DNA of 64,000 nucleotides, taken from the NCBI GenBank assembly GCA_030651695.1, contig JAUSCD010000029.1, positions 124,001-188,000 on the forward strand, in the 5' to 3' direction. The notes under the pieces were generated by a model. The model did not search any database. It had not been told where the DNA came from and saw only the letters and a program-made list of their open reading frames with translations. The stretch is from Pseudohongiella sp. GTDB taxonomy: Bacteria; Pseudomonadota; Gammaproteobacteria; Pseudomonadales; Pseudohongiellaceae. Positions within the stretch are counted from its first letter, which is position 1. Each line of letters starts with the position of its first letter. Positions 4,475 to 29,011 of this stretch are shown piece after piece. A program made the position numbers and the translations under genes.

Positions 4475-6256
4475 ATGAATACTGCCGCTGACTTGACTTC
4501 CGATGGACCCAGAACCAGCGCCCGCCATTTGTACTGGCAGGGCTGGCGGGTCGCACGCATATCTGAACTGCTGGACATACCAGCAGCGACCATACATTCG
4601 TGGAAAATCCGCGAGGGCTGGGCAGACGCATCACCAGTGCAGCGGGTGGAAGGTGCCCTTGAAGCACGGATGGTTCAGCTGATCTGCAAGGATGGAAAAG
4701 AGGGCAAGGATTTTAAGGAGATCGACCTGCTAGGCCGGCAGATGGAGCGCCTGGCACGGGTTCATAAATACGATAAAACAGGGCGTGAGGCAGATCTCAA
4801 TCCGAACATCAATGCACGCAACGAAGCCCCGCGCAGCCGGAAACAAAAACGTAATTACCTGGACGATGATCAGGTCATTGCACTGCGCGCTGCGTTCGAT
4901 GATTCGCTATTCGACTACCAGCGGGTTTGGCATGAGGCCGGCATAAAGCACCGGATCAGGAACGTCCTTAAATCCCGGCAAATTGGTGCGACATGGTACT
5001 TTGCACGTGAAGCCATCGTTGATGCGTTTGAGAATGGCCGTAATAAAATATTCTTGTCCGCCTCAAAAGCGCAGGCTCATGTGTTCAGGGCCTACATTGT
5101 CCAGTTCGTTAAGGAAACCTGCGACGTTGAGCTGAAGGGCGATCCGATCATATTGGACAACGGTGCAGAGCTGCACTTTCTAGGTACCAACTTCCGCACC
5201 GCTCAGTCCTACCATGGCGACTTGTTCATGGATGAATACTTCTGGATCCATGGGTTCCAGCAGTTCCGTAAAGTTGCTTCCGGCATGGCGATGCACAAAA
5301 AGTGGCGCCAGACGTATTTCTCCACACCATCATCGTTTTCACATGAGGCATACCCGTTCTGGTCTGGCGAGCTCTTCAACAAGCGACGCCCGAAAGCCGA
5401 GCGCGAAGAGTTTGATGTTTCACACGCAGCGCTCGCAGGCGGCGTGTTGTGTCCCGATGGCCAGTGGCGACAGATCGTCACTGTGCTGGATGCTGCAGAG
5501 GGTGGCTGTGATCTATTTGATATCGCGCAGCTGCAGCTGGAGTACTCCCCGGATGAGTTTGCGAACCTGCTGATGTGTATGTTTGTCGACGATTCACAGT
5601 CGGCATTCCCGTTGTCATTGGTCCACCCGTGCATGGTTGATAGCTGGGAAGTCTGGGAGGACTACCGGCCATTTGCCCCTAGGCCTGTTGGCGATCGCGG
5701 TGTCTGGATCGGTTATGACCCGACCGGTACCGGCGAGGATGGCGACGGGGCAGGGCTGGTGGTGGTGTTGCCGGCGAGATCCGAAAACAGCAAACACCGC
5801 GTGCTTGAAAAGCACAGGCTCAAGGGTGAGGACTACCAGGCGCAGGCCGATTTCATCAAGTCGCTCAGGACCAAATACAACATCGAACACATCGGCATCG
5901 ATGTCAGCGGCCTGGGTGAAGCCGTGGCCGAGCACGTGGAGAAGTGGTTCCCGACGCTGACCAGGTATCGCTACGACATAGGGCTCAAATCCCGAATGGT
6001 GATGCAGGCTCAGCAGATCATGCGCAAAAGACGCCTCGAGTTCGATGCGGGCTGGTCTGATATGGCGCAGTCATTCATGGCTATCAAACGTGAGCTCACA
6101 GCCAGCGGCCGCCAGTTAACTTACACATCAGGGCGGAATCGTCTGACCGGCCACGCGGATCTCGCGTGGGCAGTTATGCATGCCCTGCACTTTGAACCGA
6201 TTACCGGTGCCGCAGAAGAGGGCACAGGCAAATCCATGATGGAGATGTACGAATGA
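4475..6256 (+). CDS. P: Terminase large subunit, ATPase (P2 gpP family)
   Basis: 593 residues from the ATG at 4475 (P2 gpP has 590); the open frame extends 28 codons upstream but without family sequence. The N-terminus has the helix-turn-helix DNA-binding segment WQGWRVARISELLDIPAATIHSWK. The ATPase core shows the atypical Walker A LKSRQIGAT near residue 172 and a Walker B DLFMDEYFW near 250. The nuclease-like C-terminal domain shows GYDPTGTGEDGDGAGL, IGIDVSGLGEAV and a GHADLAWAVMHAL ending, all hallmarks of the P2 family. The stop overlaps the start of Q (ATGA), so translation is coupled. Confidence 0.95.
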   Translation: MNTAADLTSDGPRTSARHLYWQGWRVARISELLDIPAATIHSWKIREGWADASPVQRVEGALEARMVQLICKDGKEGKDFKEIDLLGRQMERLARVHKYDKTGREADLNPNINARNEAPRSRKQKRNYLDDDQVIALRAAFDDSLFDYQRVWHEAGIKHRIRNVLKSRQIGATWYFAREAIVDAFENGRNKIFLSASKAQAHVFRAYIVQFVKETCDVELKGDPIILDNGAELHFLGTNFRTAQSYHGDLFMDEYFWIHGFQQFRKVASGMAMHKKWRQTYFSTPSSFSHEAYPFWSGELFNKRRPKAEREEFDVSHAALAGGVLCPDGQWRQIVTVLDAAEGGCDLFDIAQLQLEYSPDEFANLLMCMFVDDSQSAFPLSLVHPCMVDSWEVWEDYRPFAPRPVGDRGVWIGYDPTGTGEDGDGAGLVVVLPARSENSKHRVLEKHRLKGEDYQAQADFIKSLRTKYNIEHIGIDVSGLGEAVAEHVEKWFPTLTRYRYDIGLKSRMVMQAQQIMRKRRLEFDAGWSDMAQSFMAIKRELTASGRQLTYTSGRNRLTGHADLAWAVMHALHFEPITGAAEEGTGKSMMEMYE

Positions 6257-7335
6257 GCAGACGTAGAAACCAGCGCCAACAATCCATGGCTGCTACGGCA
6301 GAGGCACCTGTAGTGGCGGCAGCAGCCCCGGCTTCAACGGGATCAGGCGTGAAGGCATTCACGTTCGGAGATCCCGAGCCAGTCACCAGCATGAGGGACT
6401 TCTTTTACGAAGGCCTCTGGCTGTCGGCTGATGAGTGGTACGAACCCCCCGTGCCGTTTGCCATCCTGGCCAAAAGCTACCGGGCTACGGCACACCACGG
6501 CAGTGCTCTGCAGGTGAAGCGCAACATTCTGCTGCGCACATTCATTCCCCATCCGCTGCTGGATCGCAGAACGTTTAAAGGTCTGGCACTGGATTACCTG
6601 GTGTTTGGCAACGGGTATCTGGAAGATCGTCGCGGCCGGTTGGGCAAGGCGTTGCCTCTGCAACACCTGCATGCCAAATACACACGCCGTGGCAACAATG
6701 ATCGGTACTGGTGGGTGCCGAACTATCTGCAGCGAACCGAGCTGCCAGCAGGGCGGGTGATACACATCAAGGAACCGGACATCGACCAGGATATCTATGG
6801 CCTGCCTGATTATCTGGGATCTCTGCAGTCAGCCTGGTTGAATGAGTCAGCCACGTTGTTCCGGCGTCGCTACTACCTCAACGGTAGTCATGCTGGGTTC
6901 ATCATGTACGTATCAGACCCTGCTCAGGATCCAAAGGATATTGATGCAATGCGTGATGCCCTTAAAGCCAGCAAGGGCGTTGGCAATTTCCGCAACCTGT
7001 TTCTCTACAGTCCGAACGGAAAGAAGGACGGGATCCAGATCATACCGGTGTCTGAGGTGGCTGCAAAAGATGAGTTCATGAACATGAAGAACATCACCCG
7101 CGACGACCAGCTGGCCGGCCACAGGATCCCGCCGCAGTTGATGGGTATCGTGCCAGGCAACGCCGGCGGATTCGGTGACGTTGAAAAAGCAGCCAAGGTA
7201 TTCGTTGCAAACGAGCTGGAGCCACTGCAGGCAGCGTTCATGGAAATCAACGAACGTATCGGCGAGGAGGTGGTTCGCTTCCGGGACTATGTCCTGGGTG
7301 ATTCACCAGGGTCCGGACTGGATCCCGCCCGTTAA
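6253..7335 (+). CDS. Q: Portal protein (P2 gpQ family)
   Basis: 360 residues (P2 gpQ has 344). It forms the dodecameric portal through which DNA enters the head and to which the tail attaches. Visible family segments are WYEPPVPFAILAKSYRATAHHGSAL near residues 55-80, LALDYLVFGNGYLE, the RAT-to-HIKEPDIDQDIYGLPDYLGSL region, and RDDQLAGHRIPPQLMGIVPGNAGGFG near residues 280-305. The N-terminal 35 residues are Ala-rich and variable. The gene is followed within 25 bases by an intrinsic terminator that ends the PQ operon. Confidence 0.95.
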   Translation: MSRRRNQRQQSMAATAEAPVVAAAAPASTGSGVKAFTFGDPEPVTSMRDFFYEGLWLSADEWYEPPVPFAILAKSYRATAHHGSALQVKRNILLRTFIPHPLLDRRTFKGLALDYLVFGNGYLEDRRGRLGKALPLQHLHAKYTRRGNNDRYWWVPNYLQRTELPAGRVIHIKEPDIDQDIYGLPDYLGSLQSAWLNESATLFRRRYYLNGSHAGFIMYVSDPAQDPKDIDAMRDALKASKGVGNFRNLFLYSPNGKKDGIQIIPVSEVAAKDEFMNMKNITRDDQLAGHRIPPQLMGIVPGNAGGFGDVEKAAKVFVANELEPLQAAFMEINERIGEEVVRFRDYVLGDSPGSGLDPAR

Positions 7336-7379: not shown

Positions 7380-7404
7380 GCCCGATCGGCACCCACAGCG
7401 CGCC

Positions 7405-7430
7405 GTCAATACCCCGCCCCGCCTCCGGTC
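7405..7430 (-). other. Candidate phage cos site
   Basis: On the minus strand this reads GGAGGCGGGGCGGGG followed by TATTGACGGCGCGCTGTGG. From memory, the left end of P2 starts GGCGAGGCGGGGAAAGCAC followed by TGCGCGCTGACGG. The GGCGGGG core, the GCGCGCTG segment and the orientation relative to the 3' end of Q all agree with P2. It also lies where cos should be, just past the Q terminator. The match is partial and includes a GC-rich tract that could arise by chance, so this is a position-supported candidate only. Confidence 0.45.
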
Positions 7431-8257
7431 TTTGCCTGTTAATTTTTTGGCAGCAGTGCAGAGCCACGCAAAGCCCGCAACACCGGCGCGATTTCGGTGA
7501 TTGTAACCATTTAAAATTTATGCACTTTTTCTTAATCCTGTCAGGCAATACGCCAGCCAGAGCAGGCATCTTTATTTTCAAAGGGGGGGTACACACGCAG
7601 AACTAACCGTGGAACCGTGGATGGGGTGTTTTAATAATTATCTGTTTGATATTTAAGAATATTCTATCCACGGTTTGGCCGTGGATGAAGTGTGGAAAGT
7701 GTGGATCATTTTTTGTACAGCTCCACGAACCGTGGATTGCTACCTGCGCATTTTCCGGGGCTTTCTTTTATATATTCTTCTTTCTTTTTAATAAGTTAAA
7801 TCAATATATATATAGAAAGAAGGTGAACAGCATCCACAGTGAGAAAGGTGAAAACGTGGAAGAATGAGCACAAACCGTGGAAAAAACAGGGTAATCCGTG
7901 GAAGCTATTTCCCCGAGTATCAATAACTTAACTAAAAACTGGGGTGAAATCCACGGGTTCTGTGCGCTCCCTGTGACCTTGGAAAAAAATAAAGGGCCGG
8001 AAAGATCCTGCCCGGTTTTTTTCTGGCGCAGCCGATTTCTCTGGTTCAGACGTGGGAGTTGGGCAGATCTGGGAGGCCGCTGGCAGCGCAGCAGCTGCAG
8101 GGGAGACAGCTGGAAGTGACTATATAAGGTGGGTGTGGATAATGCGCTGGCCAGGCAGATCTGGCCCTGTGCAGGAATATAGGAAAACTCAGATTTTTAA
8201 CACTTGAAAAAAGTGATAATAATGCAGTAAAAACAATTATTTAAGTTATTGTGCAAA
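7431..8257. other. Non-coding AT-rich prophage stretch between cos candidate and att
   Basis: About 830 bases with no open frame I can support as a gene: the longest (7646-7867 and 7898-8119, both 73 codons) have no ribosome site or recognisable sequence and run through the repeat cluster. The left half holds eight CCGTGGA/TCCACGG heptamers (separate entry); near 8132 there is one TGTGGATAA. AT content rises sharply from 7620 to 7960 and again from 8165 to 8257. In other P2-like phages this position can hold cargo genes or the attP arms; here only the latter looks plausible. Confidence 0.6.
7607..7956. repeat. Cluster of eight CCGTGGA/TCCACGG heptamers, two as hairpins
   Basis: CCGTGGA occurs at 7607, 7615, 7679, 7730, 7875 and 7896, and its complement TCCACGG at 7667 and 7950. 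Near-copies occur as CGTGGA at 7855, TGTGGA near 7691 and 7700, and TCCACG at 7722. Two sets form inverted repeats: TCCACGG-TTTGG-CCGTGGA at 7667-7685 and TCCACG-AAC-CGTGGA at 7722-7736. The flanking bases are often AA before and AA or AT after. The reported arm-site consensus of P2 integrase is TGTGGACA, which shares the GTGGA core, so these may be arm-type sites of this phage's integrase next to att. A repressor or replication-initiator array is an alternative. Confidence 0.8.
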
Positions 8258-8307
8258 CAACACTGGCAGTGTTGAGGTCAGCGGTTCGATCCCGCTTAGC
8301 TCCACCA
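8258..8307 (+). tRNA. 3' fragment of tRNA-Ala(GGC), prophage attachment site
   Basis: The sequence folds as the second half of a tRNA. It has an anticodon stem CAACA/TGTTG (8258-8262, 8270-8274) around the loop CTGGCAG with anticodon GGC, a variable AGGTC, a T arm AGCGG-TTCGATC-CCGCT, the 3' acceptor strand TAGCTCC, discriminator A and an encoded CCA at 8305-8307. The 5' half (acceptor and D arm) is absent; upstream sequence is AT-rich phage DNA. This is what remains when a phage integrates into a tRNA gene and carries its own copy of the 3' half. The intact tRNA-Ala should be at the other, unseen end of the prophage. It is followed by a good terminator. Confidence 0.92.
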
Positions 8308-8355
8308 AATTTAGTCTGAACACAGACCGCCTGATACAAATTTTGTGACAGGCAC

Positions 8356-8396
8356 AAAAAAGGCCGATTCATGTTTAAGTGAATCGGCCTTTTTGT
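8356..8396. terminator. Bidirectional terminator (tRNA-Ala / gltA)
   Basis: A perfect 10-bp stem GGCCGATTCA/TGAATCGGCC (8362-8371 and 8380-8389) with an 8-base loop, A6 on the left and T5 on the right. It can end the original tRNA-Ala transcript rightward and the gltA transcript leftward. Confidence 0.92.
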
Positions 8397-8490: not shown

Positions 8491-9768
8491 TCAGACCGGA
8501 TAGTCGCGCTTGGGTGAGCCGCGGTAGAGCTGGCGTGGGCGTCCAATTTTATAAGGGCCACTGAGCATTTCATTCCAGTGGGAGATCCAGCCAGGTGTGC
8601 GGCCCAAAGCAAAAATAACGGTAAACATGCTGGTCGGGATGCCAATGGCTTTAAGAATAATGCCTGAGTAGAAATCTACGTTAGGGTAAAGTTTTCTCTC
8701 AATAAAGTATTGATCTTCCAGAGCAATTTTTTCAAGTCTACGGGCAATCCTGAATAACGGGTCGTTTTCGACACCCAGGTCAGCCAGAACCTCATCGCAG
8801 ATCTTGCGCATGACCTTGGAGCGCGGATCAAAGTTTTTATAAACCCGGTGGCCAAAGCCCATCAGGCGGAACGGATCATCTTTGTCTTTGGCTTTGGCAA
8901 TAAACTCTTCTATGCGCGATTCATCACCAATCTCATTCAGCATCTTCAGTACAGCTTCGTTGGCGCCGCCGTGTGCCGGTCCCCACAGCGCTGCTATGCC
9001 GGAAGAGATACAGGCATAAGGATTTGCACCGGTAGAGCCAGCCAGTCTGACAGTTGACGTTGATGCGTTTTGTTCATGGTCGGCGTGCAACAGGAATATC
9101 ACGTCCACCGCCTTGGCCAATACCGAGCTGACATTCGGGCCTTCTGCGGGGACACCAAACATCATGTGCAGGAAATTCTCGGCGTAAGTCAGTGAGTTGA
9201 TAGGGCTCATTACAGGCTGGCCGATGGAGTGCTTGTAAATCATTGCGGCCAGTGTAGGCATTTTTGCGATCAGGCGGATTGCGGCAAGGTGGCGATGCTC
9301 GGCGTCATCTACATCAAGGCTGTCGTGATAAAGTGCTGCCAGAGCGCCGGTCAGAGAAATCAGTACTGCCATCGGGTGGGCGTTGCGCTGGAACCCGTTA
9401 AGTAGTTGTGCAATCTGCGCATCCACCATGGTGTGACGTTTAATTTCGTCAGTAAATGCTTGTTTGTTGGCTGCGTCGGGCAGTTCACCTTTAAGCAGTA
9501 GATAACAGGTTTCGAGGTAATCGGAATGATCTGCCAGTTGATCTATTGGATAACCACGATGTAACAGTACCCCGGCATCACCATCAATATAGGTAATTGA
9601 TGATTCTGTGGACGCTGTTGACATGAACCCTGGATCGTAGGTGAACACGCCTTTGGAAACGAGACTGCGAACGTCTATTACGTCCGGGCCAATAGTGCCT
9701 TCCAGAACGGGAAGCTCAATCACATCCTGGCTGCCGGCCAGGCTGACGCGGGCTTTTTTGTCACTCAT
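8491..9768 (-). CDS. gltA: Citrate synthase (type II)
   Basis: Condenses acetyl-CoA with oxaloacetate to citrate, the first step of the TCA cycle, in the cytoplasm. 425 residues, against 427 in E. coli. The catalytic triad is visible: His266 in [10 protein letters not shown], His307 in GFGHRVY and Asp365 in [16 protein letters not shown] near residue 228-236 and the N-terminal domain typical of the hexameric, NADH-sensitive gammaproteobacterial type are also present. It faces away from the sdh-suc operon across a 467-base gap, as in most gammaproteobacteria. Its 3' end lies less than 200 bases from the prophage att. Confidence 0.97.
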
Positions 9769-23949: not shown

Positions 23950-24471
23950 ATGTACTTTGCACTGCTCGATGGATATGAAGCGATAACAGACTTCATGGCT
24001 AGAGGCGGGAGTGTATTGTGGATTATCGCAATACTGCTTCTGGTAATGTGGTCTCTTATATTCGAGCGGATCTGGTACCTGCACTCAACTCATTCCAAGA
24101 GGGTGAAACACACCCTCGCGGCGTGGGCCGGCAGAACAGACACCCGTTCATGGCGTGCGCAACAGATACGTAACATGATGGTTTCCGAGGTATCACTCGA
24201 TCTGAAAACATCATTACCACTGATTGAAGCTCTGGTAGTTATATGCCCGCTGCTTGGTCTGCTGGGTACGGTTACAGGCATGATTGAAGTGTTTTATGTG
24301 ATGGCTTTGACCGGTGGTGGCGATGCCAAGTCAATGGCAGGTGGTGTGTCCAAAGCAACCATCCCGACCATGGCTGGAATGGTGGGTGCACTGTCCGGAA
24401 TCTTTGCTTTCAACTGGTTAAAACACCGTGTTGATCGTGACCTGGAATTTCTCGAAGATCACATGTCCTAA
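23950..24471 (+). CDS. exbB: TonB2-system proton channel ExbB
   Basis: 173 residues, short as in the TonB2-type ExbB2. Three membrane helices: VLWIIAILLLVMWSLIFERI near residues 18-37, LPLIEALVVICPLLGLLGTV near 80-100 with the GLLGTVTGMIEVF motif, and IPTMAGMVGALSGIFAFNWL near 138-157. It forms the inner-membrane proton channel with ExbD. A GGGGG ribosome site precedes the ATG by 5 bases, and the gene lies 9 bases after ttpC, so the operon now holds two ExbB-type proteins in tandem. Confidence 0.93.
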   Translation: MYFALLDGYEAITDFMARGGSVLWIIAILLLVMWSLIFERIWYLHSTHSKRVKHTLAAWAGRTDTRSWRAQQIRNMMVSEVSLDLKTSLPLIEALVVICPLLGLLGTVTGMIEVFYVMALTGGGDAKSMAGGVSKATIPTMAGMVGALSGIFAFNWLKHRVDRDLEFLEDHMS

Positions 24472-27097: not shown

Positions 27098-29011
27098 ATG
27101 ACAACGGATATCAAGAAAGAAACCAGAGGGTTTGAAACAGAAGCTAAACAACTGCTGCAACTGATGATCCACTCGCTGTATAGCAACAAGGAAGTCTTTC
27201 TTCGCGAGTTGATTTCAAATGCGTCAGATGCAGCCGACAAATTACGTTTTGAGGCGCTCTCCAGCCCTGAGCTGTATGAAAATGATGCTGATCTCAAGAT
27301 CCTCATCAGCTTCGATAAGGAAGCAGGCACTATTACCATTTCTGACAACGGCATCGGTATGAACAAGGAAGAGGTGATCAGCAACCTCGGCACTATTGCA
27401 CGATCAGGAACAGCTCAATTTTTAAATAATCTCAGCGGCGATCAGAAAAAAGATTCCCAGCTGATTGGCCAGTTCGGTGTCGGCTTCTACTCCGCATTTA
27501 TTGTCGCAACCGAAGTGGAAGTGCTTACAAGAAAAGCCGGTGCAGCTGCCTCTGACGCGGTACGATGGTTGTCTCAGGGCGAGTCAGACTATTCAGTAGA
27601 AACTGTTGAAAAAGCATCCAGAGGTACCAGCGTCACCCTGAGGCTGCGGCCCGATTGTATCGAGTTTGCTGACGGCTGGCGTCTGCGTCAGATAGTCAAA
27701 AAGTATGCCGACCATATCGCCATTCCGGTGCTGCTGCCAAAACAGAAACCGGACATAGATGATGACGAAAATAAAACATCGGAAACTCCCGAATTTGAAC
27801 CGGTAAATGCAGCCAAAGCGCTGTGGACGCGTGCGCGAAGTGAAGTGAAGGAAGACGAATATGTTGAATTCTACAAACACATCACGCACGACTATGAGAA
27901 ACCGTTAAGTTGGAGTCATAACAAGGTTGAAGGCAAACTGGAGTACAACAGCCTGTTGTATGTGCCAGGTCGCGCACCTTTTGATTTATGGAACCGCGAC
28001 GGTGTCAGAGGGTTAAAACTCTACGTGCAGCGCGTTTTTATCATGGATCAGGCTGAACAGTTTCTGCCTCTGTATCTGCGCTTTATCAAAGGCGTTGTCG
28101 ATTCCAATGATATCTCGCTGAATGTTTCACGGGAAATTCTTCAGAAGGATCCTGCCGTCGATTCCATGCGCAGCGCATTAACAAAACGTGCGCTGGATAT
28201 GTTGTCCAAACTCAAAGCGGACGACAAAGAAAAATATGCAAAATTCTGGGGGGAATTTGGTCAGGTTCTTAAAGAAGGTCCGGGAGAAGATTTCTCCAAT
28301 CGTGAGGCCATTGCCAAACTGTTGATGTTTAACAGTACGCATGAAGGCAGCACCGGGCAGGATCAGAGTCTGGAAGACTATGTCTCACGGTTGAAGCCTG
28401 AACAAAACAAAATTTATTATCTGATTGCAGATTCTGCAAAAACAGCCCGCAACAGCCCGCACCTGGAGATATTCAGGAAAAAGGGTATAGAAGTGCTGCT
28501 ATTGTCCGATCGGATTGATGAATGGCTGATGAGCCACTTACATGAGTTTGATGGCAAGTCATTACAGGACATCACTCGTGGTGAACTGGATCTTGGCAAG
28601 CTTGATGATGAAACAGAAAAAGCCGAACAGGAAAAGCGCGAAGAGTCGATGAAGCCTTTGCTGGACCGCGTAAAAACCAGTCTGGGTGAGCGCATAAAAG
28701 AGGCGAGGGTGAGCCACCGGTTAACCGACTCTCCAGCGTGTCTTGCGCTTGACGATGATGACATGGGCGCGCAGATGCGTCGTATCATGCAGGCATCAGG
28801 ACAGCCAGTGCCAGAGACCAAGCCCGTTTTTGAGCTCAACCCGGATCATCCTTTGATTAATAAACTGGAGCGTGAACCTGATGAAGAGCGCTTCGGCGAT
28901 TTGATCTCCTTGCTGTTTGACCAGGCCAGCCTGGCGGAAGGTCAGGAGCTTGAAGACCCTGCGCGCTTCAGTCGCCAGCTCAACAAACTTCTGCTTGAGC
29001 TGTGTGACTGA
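27098..29011 (+). CDS. htpG: Chaperone HtpG (Hsp90 family)
   Basis: Cytoplasmic ATP-dependent Hsp90 chaperone. 637 residues (624 in E. coli). The N-terminal GHKL ATPase motifs are clear: [15 protein letters not shown] near residue 38, [11 protein letters not shown] near 84 and [14 protein letters not shown] near 125. The middle domain has [10 protein letters not shown] and the C-terminal dimerisation domain ends without the eukaryotic MEEVD, as in bacteria. The start has AGGGGT upstream. It is monocistronic between a terminator and the convergent argS, with a sigma32 promoter upstream. Confidence 0.97.

What the first reader, a model, noticed from the sequence alone, without database searches (positions are those of the whole stretch)
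7607..7956. Dense CCGTGGA heptamer cluster between cos and att: possible integrase arm-site array
Eight exact heptamers in 350 non-coding bases is far above chance (about 0.04 expected for both strands). Two sets form hairpins (7667-7685, 7722-7736). The GTGGA core matches the reported P2 integrase arm-site consensus TGTGGACA, and the array lies 300 bases from the att core. The number of sites and the inverted arrangement exceed the few arm sites known for P2, so it may be an unusual attP arm, an operator array or a replication element.
Basis: partly seen in the sequence, partly recalled or inferred. Interest (0 to 1): 0.62.

Follow-up and report, generated by a model that had tools for sequence, protein, structure and literature searches.

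The report
Phage replication origin, not integrase sites
The cluster of CCGTGGA repeats is part of a roughly 380-base DNA element that travels with one phage DNA-copying enzyme through many different phages, so it is most likely the place where these viruses start copying their DNA and not where they insert into the host chromosome.

Summary
In detail: eight exact CCGTGGA heptamers lie in 7607-7956, non-coding, between cos (7390-7423) and attR (8258-8309), far above chance. The integrase arm-site reading does not hold. The array is the core of a conserved ~380-408-nt element (window 7592-7971, minus strand); a profile built without the window finds it at E 6.6e-44. The element tracks a TOPRIM primase-helicase (911 aa here), not the integrase: 56 of 63 bacterial loci carrying that primase with at least 1.5 kb downstream have it, all 56 on the primase strand. 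It occurs in phages with no annotated integrase (KS14, FLC5, FLC10), in a siphophage, and beside cos in two relatives' prophage ends that show other attachment systems, but in none of the integrase-relative loci held. The integrase has its own arm-type repeats, TGCACAARAAC, at the attachment core. The element has iterons on both sides of an AT-rich centre plus IHF-like sites; the C-half of a homologous primase is predicted to fold like SCCmec Cch and SaPIBov1 Rep. Best explanation: a SaPI/PICI-type iteron replication origin in full-size P2-like phages. Function is inferred; nothing was tested at the bench.

The parts
7592..7971 (-). Whole conserved element (proposed iteron replication origin), on the strand of the primase gene
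   Evidence: nhmmer with a profile from 14 other elements, window held out: model 1-406, E 6.6e-44
7607..7621 (+). Two iterons CCGTGGA-A-CCGTGGA; the conserved terminal pair of the element
7667..7685 (.). Inverted iteron pair TCCACGG/CCGTGGA (hairpin)
7690..7705 (+). Two variant iterons GTGTGGA (GTGGA cores at 7692 and 7701)
7722..7736 (.). Inverted iteron pair TCCACG/CGTGGA (hairpin)
7757..7826 (.). AT-rich centre (77% A+T against 54-56% on either side) with a pyrimidine/purine inverted repeat (arms 7777-7790 and 7809-7822); proposed melting region
   Evidence: similar layout in relatives
7832..7860 (.). Two variant iterons (TCCAC at 7833 on -, GTGGA at 7856 on +)
7875..7902 (+). Two iterons CCGTGGA
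7918..7930 (+). Exact IHF-consensus site TATCAATAACTTA, at the position where 113 such sites lie in 136 elements
   Evidence: the consensus WATCAANNNNTTR is recalled
7639..7651 (-). IHF-like site TATCAAACAGATA, one base off consensus, at the second conserved position
   Evidence: read
7950..7956 (-). Iteron CCGTGGA at the other end of the element
7390..7423 (-). cos site by alignment to P2 cos
   Evidence: a similar stretch at C13:40442-40498, 88%
8245..8256 (-). Candidate true Int arm-type site GTTATTGTGCAA (reverse complement TTGCACAATAAC); three direct copies lie on the int side of attL (L005 3559-3593)
   Evidence: TGCACAA itself is not rare (17 in the window), so the case rests on the three copies and on Int relatives
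8258..8309 (+). attR core, 3' part of tRNA-Ala(GGC)
   Evidence: 52 bp identical to C21:101478-101529; tRNA at L005 3452-3527
6253..7335 (+). P2-type portal gene
   Evidence: phrog_68, E 2.3e-149

Best explanation
The array is the iteron part of a replication origin of a P2-like prophage that carries a fused TOPRIM primase-helicase. Inferred mechanism: the C-terminal winged-helix domain of the 911-aa protein (gene at L005 7261-9996, minus strand) binds the CCGTGGA-type iterons on both sides of the AT-rich centre. IHF bends the DNA at the two flanking sites. Hexamers of the MCM-like helicase load at the melted centre, and the fused DnaG-like domain primes synthesis, as in SaPI/PICI Rep-ori systems. 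In the circular phage the origin lies about 4.1 kb downstream of the primase gene, on its strand, across int and attP. Shown here: the element, its conservation, its linkage to the primase, its strand, its layout, and the predicted fold of a 56%-identical homologue. Inferred: binding, melting and origin activity.
For: (1) A profile from 14 relatives' elements, with the window, KS14, yong1 and L037 left out, finds the window at 6.6e-44, L037 at 7.1e-29, KS14 at 3.4e-27 and yong1 at 3.1e-17; it finds nothing in P2, 186 or P4 at E<1e-3 and nothing in Markov-shuffled copies of all 143 sequences. (2) 58 of the 66 non-seed viral loci with the primase (the best 80 of 121 relatives were kept, 14 were seeds) and 56 of 63 bacterial loci with at least 1.5 kb downstream carry it; 56 of 56 on the primase strand. 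(3) Reverse test: two DNA patterns gave 14 stretches; all 9 with a full element have the primase in the locus (8) or record (1). Five of the 9 are contigs already seen, 4 are new. (4) Apart from out-of-frame ORFs inside the primase gene, the primase is the only protein found in every genome of both a P2-like set (own, KS14, KL3, AP3) and a siphophage-type set (yong1, L114, L037; the last two are fragments) at E<=1e-6. (5) Iterons flank an AT-rich centre; exact IHF consensus sites are 40 times denser than in the loci as a whole (3.27 against 0.081 per kb) and sit at fixed places. (6) Phages with no annotated integrase (KS14, FLC5, FLC10) have it. (7) C-half of the L037 primase: SCCmec Cch 5dgk Z 12.5, SaPIBov1 Rep 8tch Z 11.6, then a winged-helix/oriT-DNA protein Z 7.9 on the last domain. 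(8) SaPI/PICI origins lie directly 3' of rep as two iteron sets around an AT-rich region, bound by the Rep C-terminus (PMC7581432 and PMC6092414, passages).
Against: No binding or replication experiment was done or found. 7 of 63 bacterial loci and 4 viral loci with over 1.6 kb downstream lack a detectable element. In the window and in G432 it lies beside cos, not beside the primase. KS14 also encodes a separate annotated replication initiation protein (27740-28495) with repeats of its own just upstream (seen), so its plasmid state cannot be credited to this element. The iteron sequence varies between relatives (CCGTGGA, CTGTGGA, CCGAGGA, GCCACGAGTC, GATGGA), so recognition by the primase is an inference. 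Part of the helicase core is poorly predicted (residues 141-219 of the C-half below pLDDT 50), and a Z of 7.9 can be a common arrangement by the tool's own note. GC skew did not point to it.
Confidence: 0.8

Rival explanations
1. Integrase arm-site array: the 411-aa Int binds the heptamers to build the intasome.
For: The heptamers lie 302-651 bases from the att core, the element has IHF-like sites, and GTGGA resembles P2 Int arm sites (TGTGGACA at P2 24471 and 24482).
Against: Absent from all loci held around the eight Int relatives of 41-49% identity, though for several of them the far attachment end was not identified. Present with an unrelated XerD-like recombinase, with a serine integrase, next to an Arm-DNA-bind_3 integrase, at a prophage end beside a tmRNA gene, and in phages with no annotated integrase. 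Int has other arm-type repeats at the core, and by eye 5 of the 8 Int relatives have similar ones in the same place. In KL3 and AP3 the element lies 5' of the int gene, in the window beyond attP.
Confidence: 0.03
2. A cis-acting replication control or maintenance site (P4 crr-like helper, incompatibility or copy-control iterons) that binds the primase-helicase but is not where synthesis starts.
For: P4 has two such loci, ori and crr, and crr is a mixed-orientation repeat block directly downstream of alpha and near attP.
Against: It has its own AT-rich centre like a complete PICI origin, and the k-mer scan found no second non-coding array in the rest of the prophage (L005 and L006, at p<1e-7).
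Confidence: 0.11
3. A packaging signal beside cos (terminase-binding repeats).
For: It is beside cos, and near a portal gene, in the window and at two G432 prophage ends, in the same order and orientation and at a similar distance from cos.
Against: In KL3 and AP3 it is beside the primase and int region, about 10.8 and 3.8 kb from the portal gene. yong1 has no match to the P2-type terminase at E<=1e-6. P2 and 186, whose cos aligns with this one, lack it.
Confidence: 0.03
4. A recombination or dimer-resolution site for the XerD-like recombinase encoded next to it in a subgroup.
For: The recombinase gene starts at or within about 100 bases of the element in L037, L114, L116 and yong1, and a homologue lies beside it in G127 and G447.
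Against: The P2-like phages (own, KL3, KS14, AP3) show no BLASTP match to that recombinase at E<=1e-6.
Confidence: 0.03

Closest known systems
SaPI/PICI replication origins (SaPIBov1 Rep-ori, EcCICFT073 rep-ori)
   Same: Short iterons in two sets flanking an AT-rich region; downstream of the initiator gene in most relatives; initiator with the same predicted helicase fold and a C-terminal winged-helix-like domain (8tch Z 11.6).
   Different: Found here in full-size temperate phages; initiator fused to a DnaG-type TOPRIM primase (the paper puts the SaPIbov1 and SaPI5 primases in the AEP family); element about 400 nt with two IHF-like sites; in the window it is separated from the gene by other genes, int and attP.
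Phage P4 alpha / ori / crr
   Same: Primase replicon; crr is a block of short mixed-orientation repeats directly 3' of the alpha gene and near attP.
   Different: Different repeat sequence; no significant profile match (best E 0.44, inside crr); P4 is annotated with two separate loci.
P2 integrase arm sites
   Same: GTGGA core.
   Different: P2 has TGTGGACA at 24471 and 24482 and one related site in the P arm; the element has 13 GTGGA cores in mixed orientation and no TGTGGACA.
Burkholderia phages KL3, KS5, KS14, AP3, FLC5, FLC10 (Peduoviridae)
   Same: Homologous primase (about 50-55%), P2-type structural genes, homologous element.
   Different: Their records list no replication origin; the repeat sequence differs (KS14 CCGAGGA, KL3 GCCACGAGTC).

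Membership tests
[quoted passage not shown]
   13 GTGGA cores on both sides of 7757-7826 (77% A+T against 54-56%); similar layout in relatives
SaPI/PICI-type iteron origin | Location immediately 3' of the initiator gene | tested here: inconclusive
   Downstream on the same strand in 56 of 63 bacterial loci, 67-5283 nt after the end of the primase match; in the window about 4.1 kb downstream on the circular map, so downstream but not immediately
SaPI/PICI-type iteron origin | Cognate initiator with helicase and C-terminal DNA-binding domain | tested here: met
   Predicted fold only, from the L037 homologue: 5dgk Z 12.5, 8tch Z 11.6, 5vfx Z 7.9
SaPI/PICI-type iteron origin | Initiator binds the iterons; rep plus ori replicates a plasmid | not testable with these tools
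   Needs gel shift and a plasmid assay
PICI (as an element) | Satellite that depends on a helper phage | tested here: not met
   The prophage carries its own P2-type capsid, terminase and portal genes
Tyrosine-integrase arm-site array | Same repeats present near att of relatives with the same integrase | tested here: not met
   No element at E<1e-3 in any Int-relative locus held (L011-L031, L120-L135); other repeats are there instead in most
Tyrosine-integrase arm-site array | Occurs only in elements with that integrase | tested here: not met
   KS14, FLC5 and FLC10 have it with no integrase annotated; L114 has a serine integrase
P4 ori/crr | Homologous sequence to P4 crr or ori | tested here: not met
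   Best match E 0.44

The most novel reading that the evidence does not exclude
A whole branch of P2-like phages, together with unrelated siphophages, uses a mobile satellite-type replicon: a TOPRIM-primase/MCM-like helicase plus an IHF-flanked iteron origin. The origin organisation that was reported for PICI satellites and 'no other known bacterial replicon' is therefore shared with full phages, and the replicon moves between phages as a two-part cassette whose iterons change between lineages.
Probability: 0.5. Interest if true: 0.65.

Novelty: new variant of a known kind. Interest (0 to 1): 0.5.

Why it matters
P2 is the textbook gpA rolling-circle phage (recalled; its record annotates gpA as nicking at the origin). 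This element suggests how a large sister branch (KL3, KS5, AP3, KS14 and many prophages) may start replication instead. It gives a ready-made origin/initiator pair to test, and links phage replicons to those of satellites (SaPI/PICI, P4) that compete with them. It also warns that repeats near an attachment site need not be integrase sites.

Tried and rejected
Arm-site reading: rejected (see rivals). Packaging and XerD-site readings: rejected as the general role. DnaA boxes: the iterons share TCCAC with the DnaA box (recalled) and an exact TTATCCACA (reverse strand) lies at 8134-8142, but outside the element; not pursued. GC skew was uninformative: the curves run one way over most of each genome, and my piece of the own prophage lacked 2 kb. 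A primase tree against repeat type was prepared but not built (only printed the help text and labels). Int as a query gave no relative in genome contigs or viral contigs and one weak match in 'phages' (28%); its relatives came from the genome search only. Arrays near Int relatives: L127/L128 CCGTTTA repeats look coding (not checked further); L124 and L130 arrays lie in gaps after other genes. The L200 array is a 43-bp tandem repeat and was not counted. Phages with the primase: I fetched 7 of the 20 matching records (KL3, KS5, KS14, AP3, FLC5, FLC10, yong1); all 7 have the element. The 14 seeds of the profile were picked by eye after a GTGGA scan. Counts are not independent: many loci are near-identical Burkholderia prophages, and some sequences occur in both collections. 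Of 80 viral loci, 8 lack the element; 4 of these end within 260 nt of the primase and 4 do not. Of 74 bacterial loci, 7 do not reach the primase C-terminus and 4 of the other 67 have under 1500 nt downstream. In the reverse test, two further stretches (L221, L226) had only short weak profile matches (E 3e-4 and 8e-4) and three (L217, L218, L224) none; no primase was found in any of these five loci, nor in the records of L221 and L224. Order search: 390 genomes, four full-length primases besides the own one (G432 twice, G127, G447). G127 and G447 have the element beside it. L265 and L266 are assigned to G432's two primase prophages by inference only, since they lie on other contigs. In the own family 1 of the 136 other genomes had a match, weak and partial. 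Literature: nine searches; no listed title or start of abstract describes this element; I did not read the listed papers beyond the three named below, and most subscription papers are not held. Seen: PMC3091744, PMC7581432 and PMC6092414, passages only; Ubeda 2007 only as cited there.

Full report
What is there. The window is G000:C21:124001-188000. Its first 7.3 kb hold P2-type late genes: baseplate hub, head-tail adaptor, terminase small subunit, capsid, scaffold, terminase large subunit and portal. After the portal gene come about 920 bases without a convincing gene and then a 52-bp copy of the 3' part of tRNA-Ala(GGC) at 8258-8309. The same 52 bases end the intact tRNA at C21:101478-101529, so the prophage spans about 31 kb. 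At the other end lie a 411-aa tyrosine integrase (L005 3635-4870) and a 911-aa primase (L005 7261-9996; phrog_5629 with E 0; TOPRIM by Pfam). None of the 17 prophage proteins scanned matched a P2 gpA-type replicase; the proteins of L006 were not scanned.

Eight CCGTGGA copies lie in 7607-7956, in both orientations, with two hairpins. A local Poisson estimate gives p 2.7e-14. The best heptamer in 1000 Markov shuffles reached at most 6 copies. In the own genome, two copies in the same orientation within 30 bases occur only here. cos is at 7390-7423 by alignment with P2 cos.

The integrase does not own the array. Eight Int relatives of 41-49% identity were found in seven genomes (G015 twice, G057, G063, G067, G118, G144, G165). 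The element was not found in the loci held around them, 7.6 to about 60 kb each as the contigs allowed. In several of those elements the far attachment end was not identified, so absence there is less certain than absence near int. What most of them do have is a set of three short direct repeats between the attachment core and int. In the own prophage these are TGCACAAGAAC, TGCACAAGAAC and TGCACAATAAC at L005 3559-3593, with an inverted copy at window 8245-8256. By eye, similar triples are in L012, L013, L015, L016 and L025; L030 has three copies of GTTTTTCTCCA, L011 a looser pair, and L014 none that I could see. These are the likely true arm sites. TGCACAA alone is not rare (17 in the window).

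The primase owns it. k-mer scans of 80 viral loci that carry a homologous primase (the best 80 of 121) showed the same kind of array just downstream of it in several. A profile HMM from 14 of these elements, picked by eye and without the window, found the window at 7592-7971 on the minus strand with E 6.6e-44. The same profile found KL3, KS5, AP3, KS14, FLC5, FLC10 and the Microcystis siphophage yong1. It found nothing at E<1e-3 in P2, 186 or P4, in any Int-relative locus, or in Markov shuffles of all 143 sequences. Of the 66 non-seed viral loci, 58 have it. In bacterial genomes, 56 of 63 primase loci with at least 1500 nt downstream carry it, 67-5283 nt after the end of the primase match, all on the primase strand. 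In the reverse direction, two DNA patterns gave 14 stretches; 9 contain a full element, and all 9 have the primase in the locus (8) or elsewhere in the record (1). Five of those 9 are contigs already seen, 4 are new. When protein sets were compared at E<=1e-6, the primase (apart from out-of-frame ORFs inside its gene) was the only protein found in all of a P2-like set (own, KS14, KL3, AP3) and a siphophage-type set (yong1 and the fragments L114 and L037); one further own protein, a phosphatase, has a match in L114 alone.

Natural experiments separate the element from integration. KS14, FLC5 and FLC10 have the element, and their records list no integrase (KS14 and FLC5 list a DNA invertase, and many FLC10 genes are unnamed). 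KS14 is kept as a plasmid (PMC3091744, passages), but it encodes a further replication initiation protein with repeats of its own, so this does not show that the element drives plasmid replication. L114 has a large serine integrase. L037 and L116 have a XerD-like recombinase whose best BLASTP match to the own Int has E 0.11 and 1.9. In G432, which has two primases of 64% identity, the element was not found near the primase genes but beside cos, near a portal fragment, on two other contigs (L265, E 9e-28; L266, E 2.5e-13), in the same order and orientation as in the window. One of these lies next to an Arm-DNA-bind_3 integrase with no similarity to the own Int; the other lies beside a tmRNA gene, the likely attachment site. 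So the same element beside cos goes with what look like three attachment systems.

Anatomy. In the model orientation the element begins with a CCGTGGA iteron and an IHF-consensus site, then iterons, an AT-rich centre with a pyrimidine/purine inverted repeat, more iterons, a second IHF-like site and a closing iteron pair. Of 136 elements, 118 have at least one exact IHF consensus; 113 such sites fall at the first position and 55 (61 with the neighbouring bin) at the second; the density is 3.27 per kb against 0.081 per kb in the loci. In the window the first is exact (7918-7930) and the second is one base off (7639-7651). The centre, 7757-7826, is 77% A+T. The iteron core varies between lineages: CGTGGA, TGTGGA, CGAGGA in the KS14 group, GTGGC in the KL3 group, GATGGA in a few.

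The partner protein. The model of the L037 primase (56% identical to the own one) has a DnaG-like N-terminal half (T7 gp4 Z 16.6, DnaG Z 16.1). The C-terminal half, predicted from 31 sequences (mean pLDDT 73), is closest to SCCmec Cch (Z 12.5, rmsd 3.8, 231 aligned) and SaPIBov1 Rep (Z 11.6, rmsd 9.7, 309 aligned). Its last domain is closest to a winged-helix protein solved with oriT DNA (Z 7.9, rmsd 3.5, 93 aligned), a level that the tool calls common; MCM helicases follow at Z 6.6 and below. Part of the helicase core is poorly predicted.

Comparison with what is known. [quoted passage not shown] P4 has a comparable block, crr, directly 3' of alpha and near attP. The element here resembles these in layout and partner, and differs in sequence, in its IHF-like sites, in the TOPRIM primase fusion and in sitting in complete phages. 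In the window it is not immediately 3' of the gene: it is about 4.1 kb downstream on the circular map, across int and attP (worked out).

Verdict. The array is real and is most likely a replication origin of a SaPI/PICI type in a P2-like phage, confidence 0.80. The integrase reading is rejected. Binding, melting and origin activity are inferred and need the tests listed.

Noticed in passing
L007 4443-4499 (G000:C13:40442-40498): A second cos-like stretch, 88% identical to window 7397-7453, near HTH and IrrE-like genes and without the iteron element: possibly a satellite or remnant that mimics this phage's cos.
   Followed up: partly
L124 14024-14300 and L130 13379-13680: Two elements with Int relatives carry other arrays (GTGGTCA; ACCGGCA): direct repeats, AT-rich stretch, inverted repeats, in gaps just after another gene (not identified). 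These look like further PICI-type origins.
   Followed up: partly
L005 3529-3541: Exact IHF-consensus site AATCAATGACTTA directly beside the attL core on the int side, as expected for an intasome.
   Followed up: no
window 8134-8142: Exact DnaA-box TTATCCACA (minus strand) between the element and attR.
   Followed up: no
L037 17790-18800, L114 13739-14797, L116 14547-15605, L138 26672-27754, L248 4216-5202, L251 8651-9634: A XerD-like recombinase (41-49% identical between the groups) is encoded right beside the element in the non-P2-like phages; its role (for instance dimer resolution) is unknown.
   Followed up: partly
L119 (KS14) 27740-28680: KS14 has a second, plasmid-type replication initiation gene with its own direct repeats upstream, so it may carry two replicons: one for the plasmid state and the primase element for lytic growth.
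   Followed up: no
window 8357-8394: Perfect 15-bp inverted repeat with flanking A/T runs just outside attR, probably a terminator after the citrate-synthase-like gene at 8491-9768 (gene name recalled).
   Followed up: no
L141 4330-4390 (P4): The only profile match in P4, below threshold (E 0.44), falls inside the annotated crr; possibly chance.
   Followed up: no
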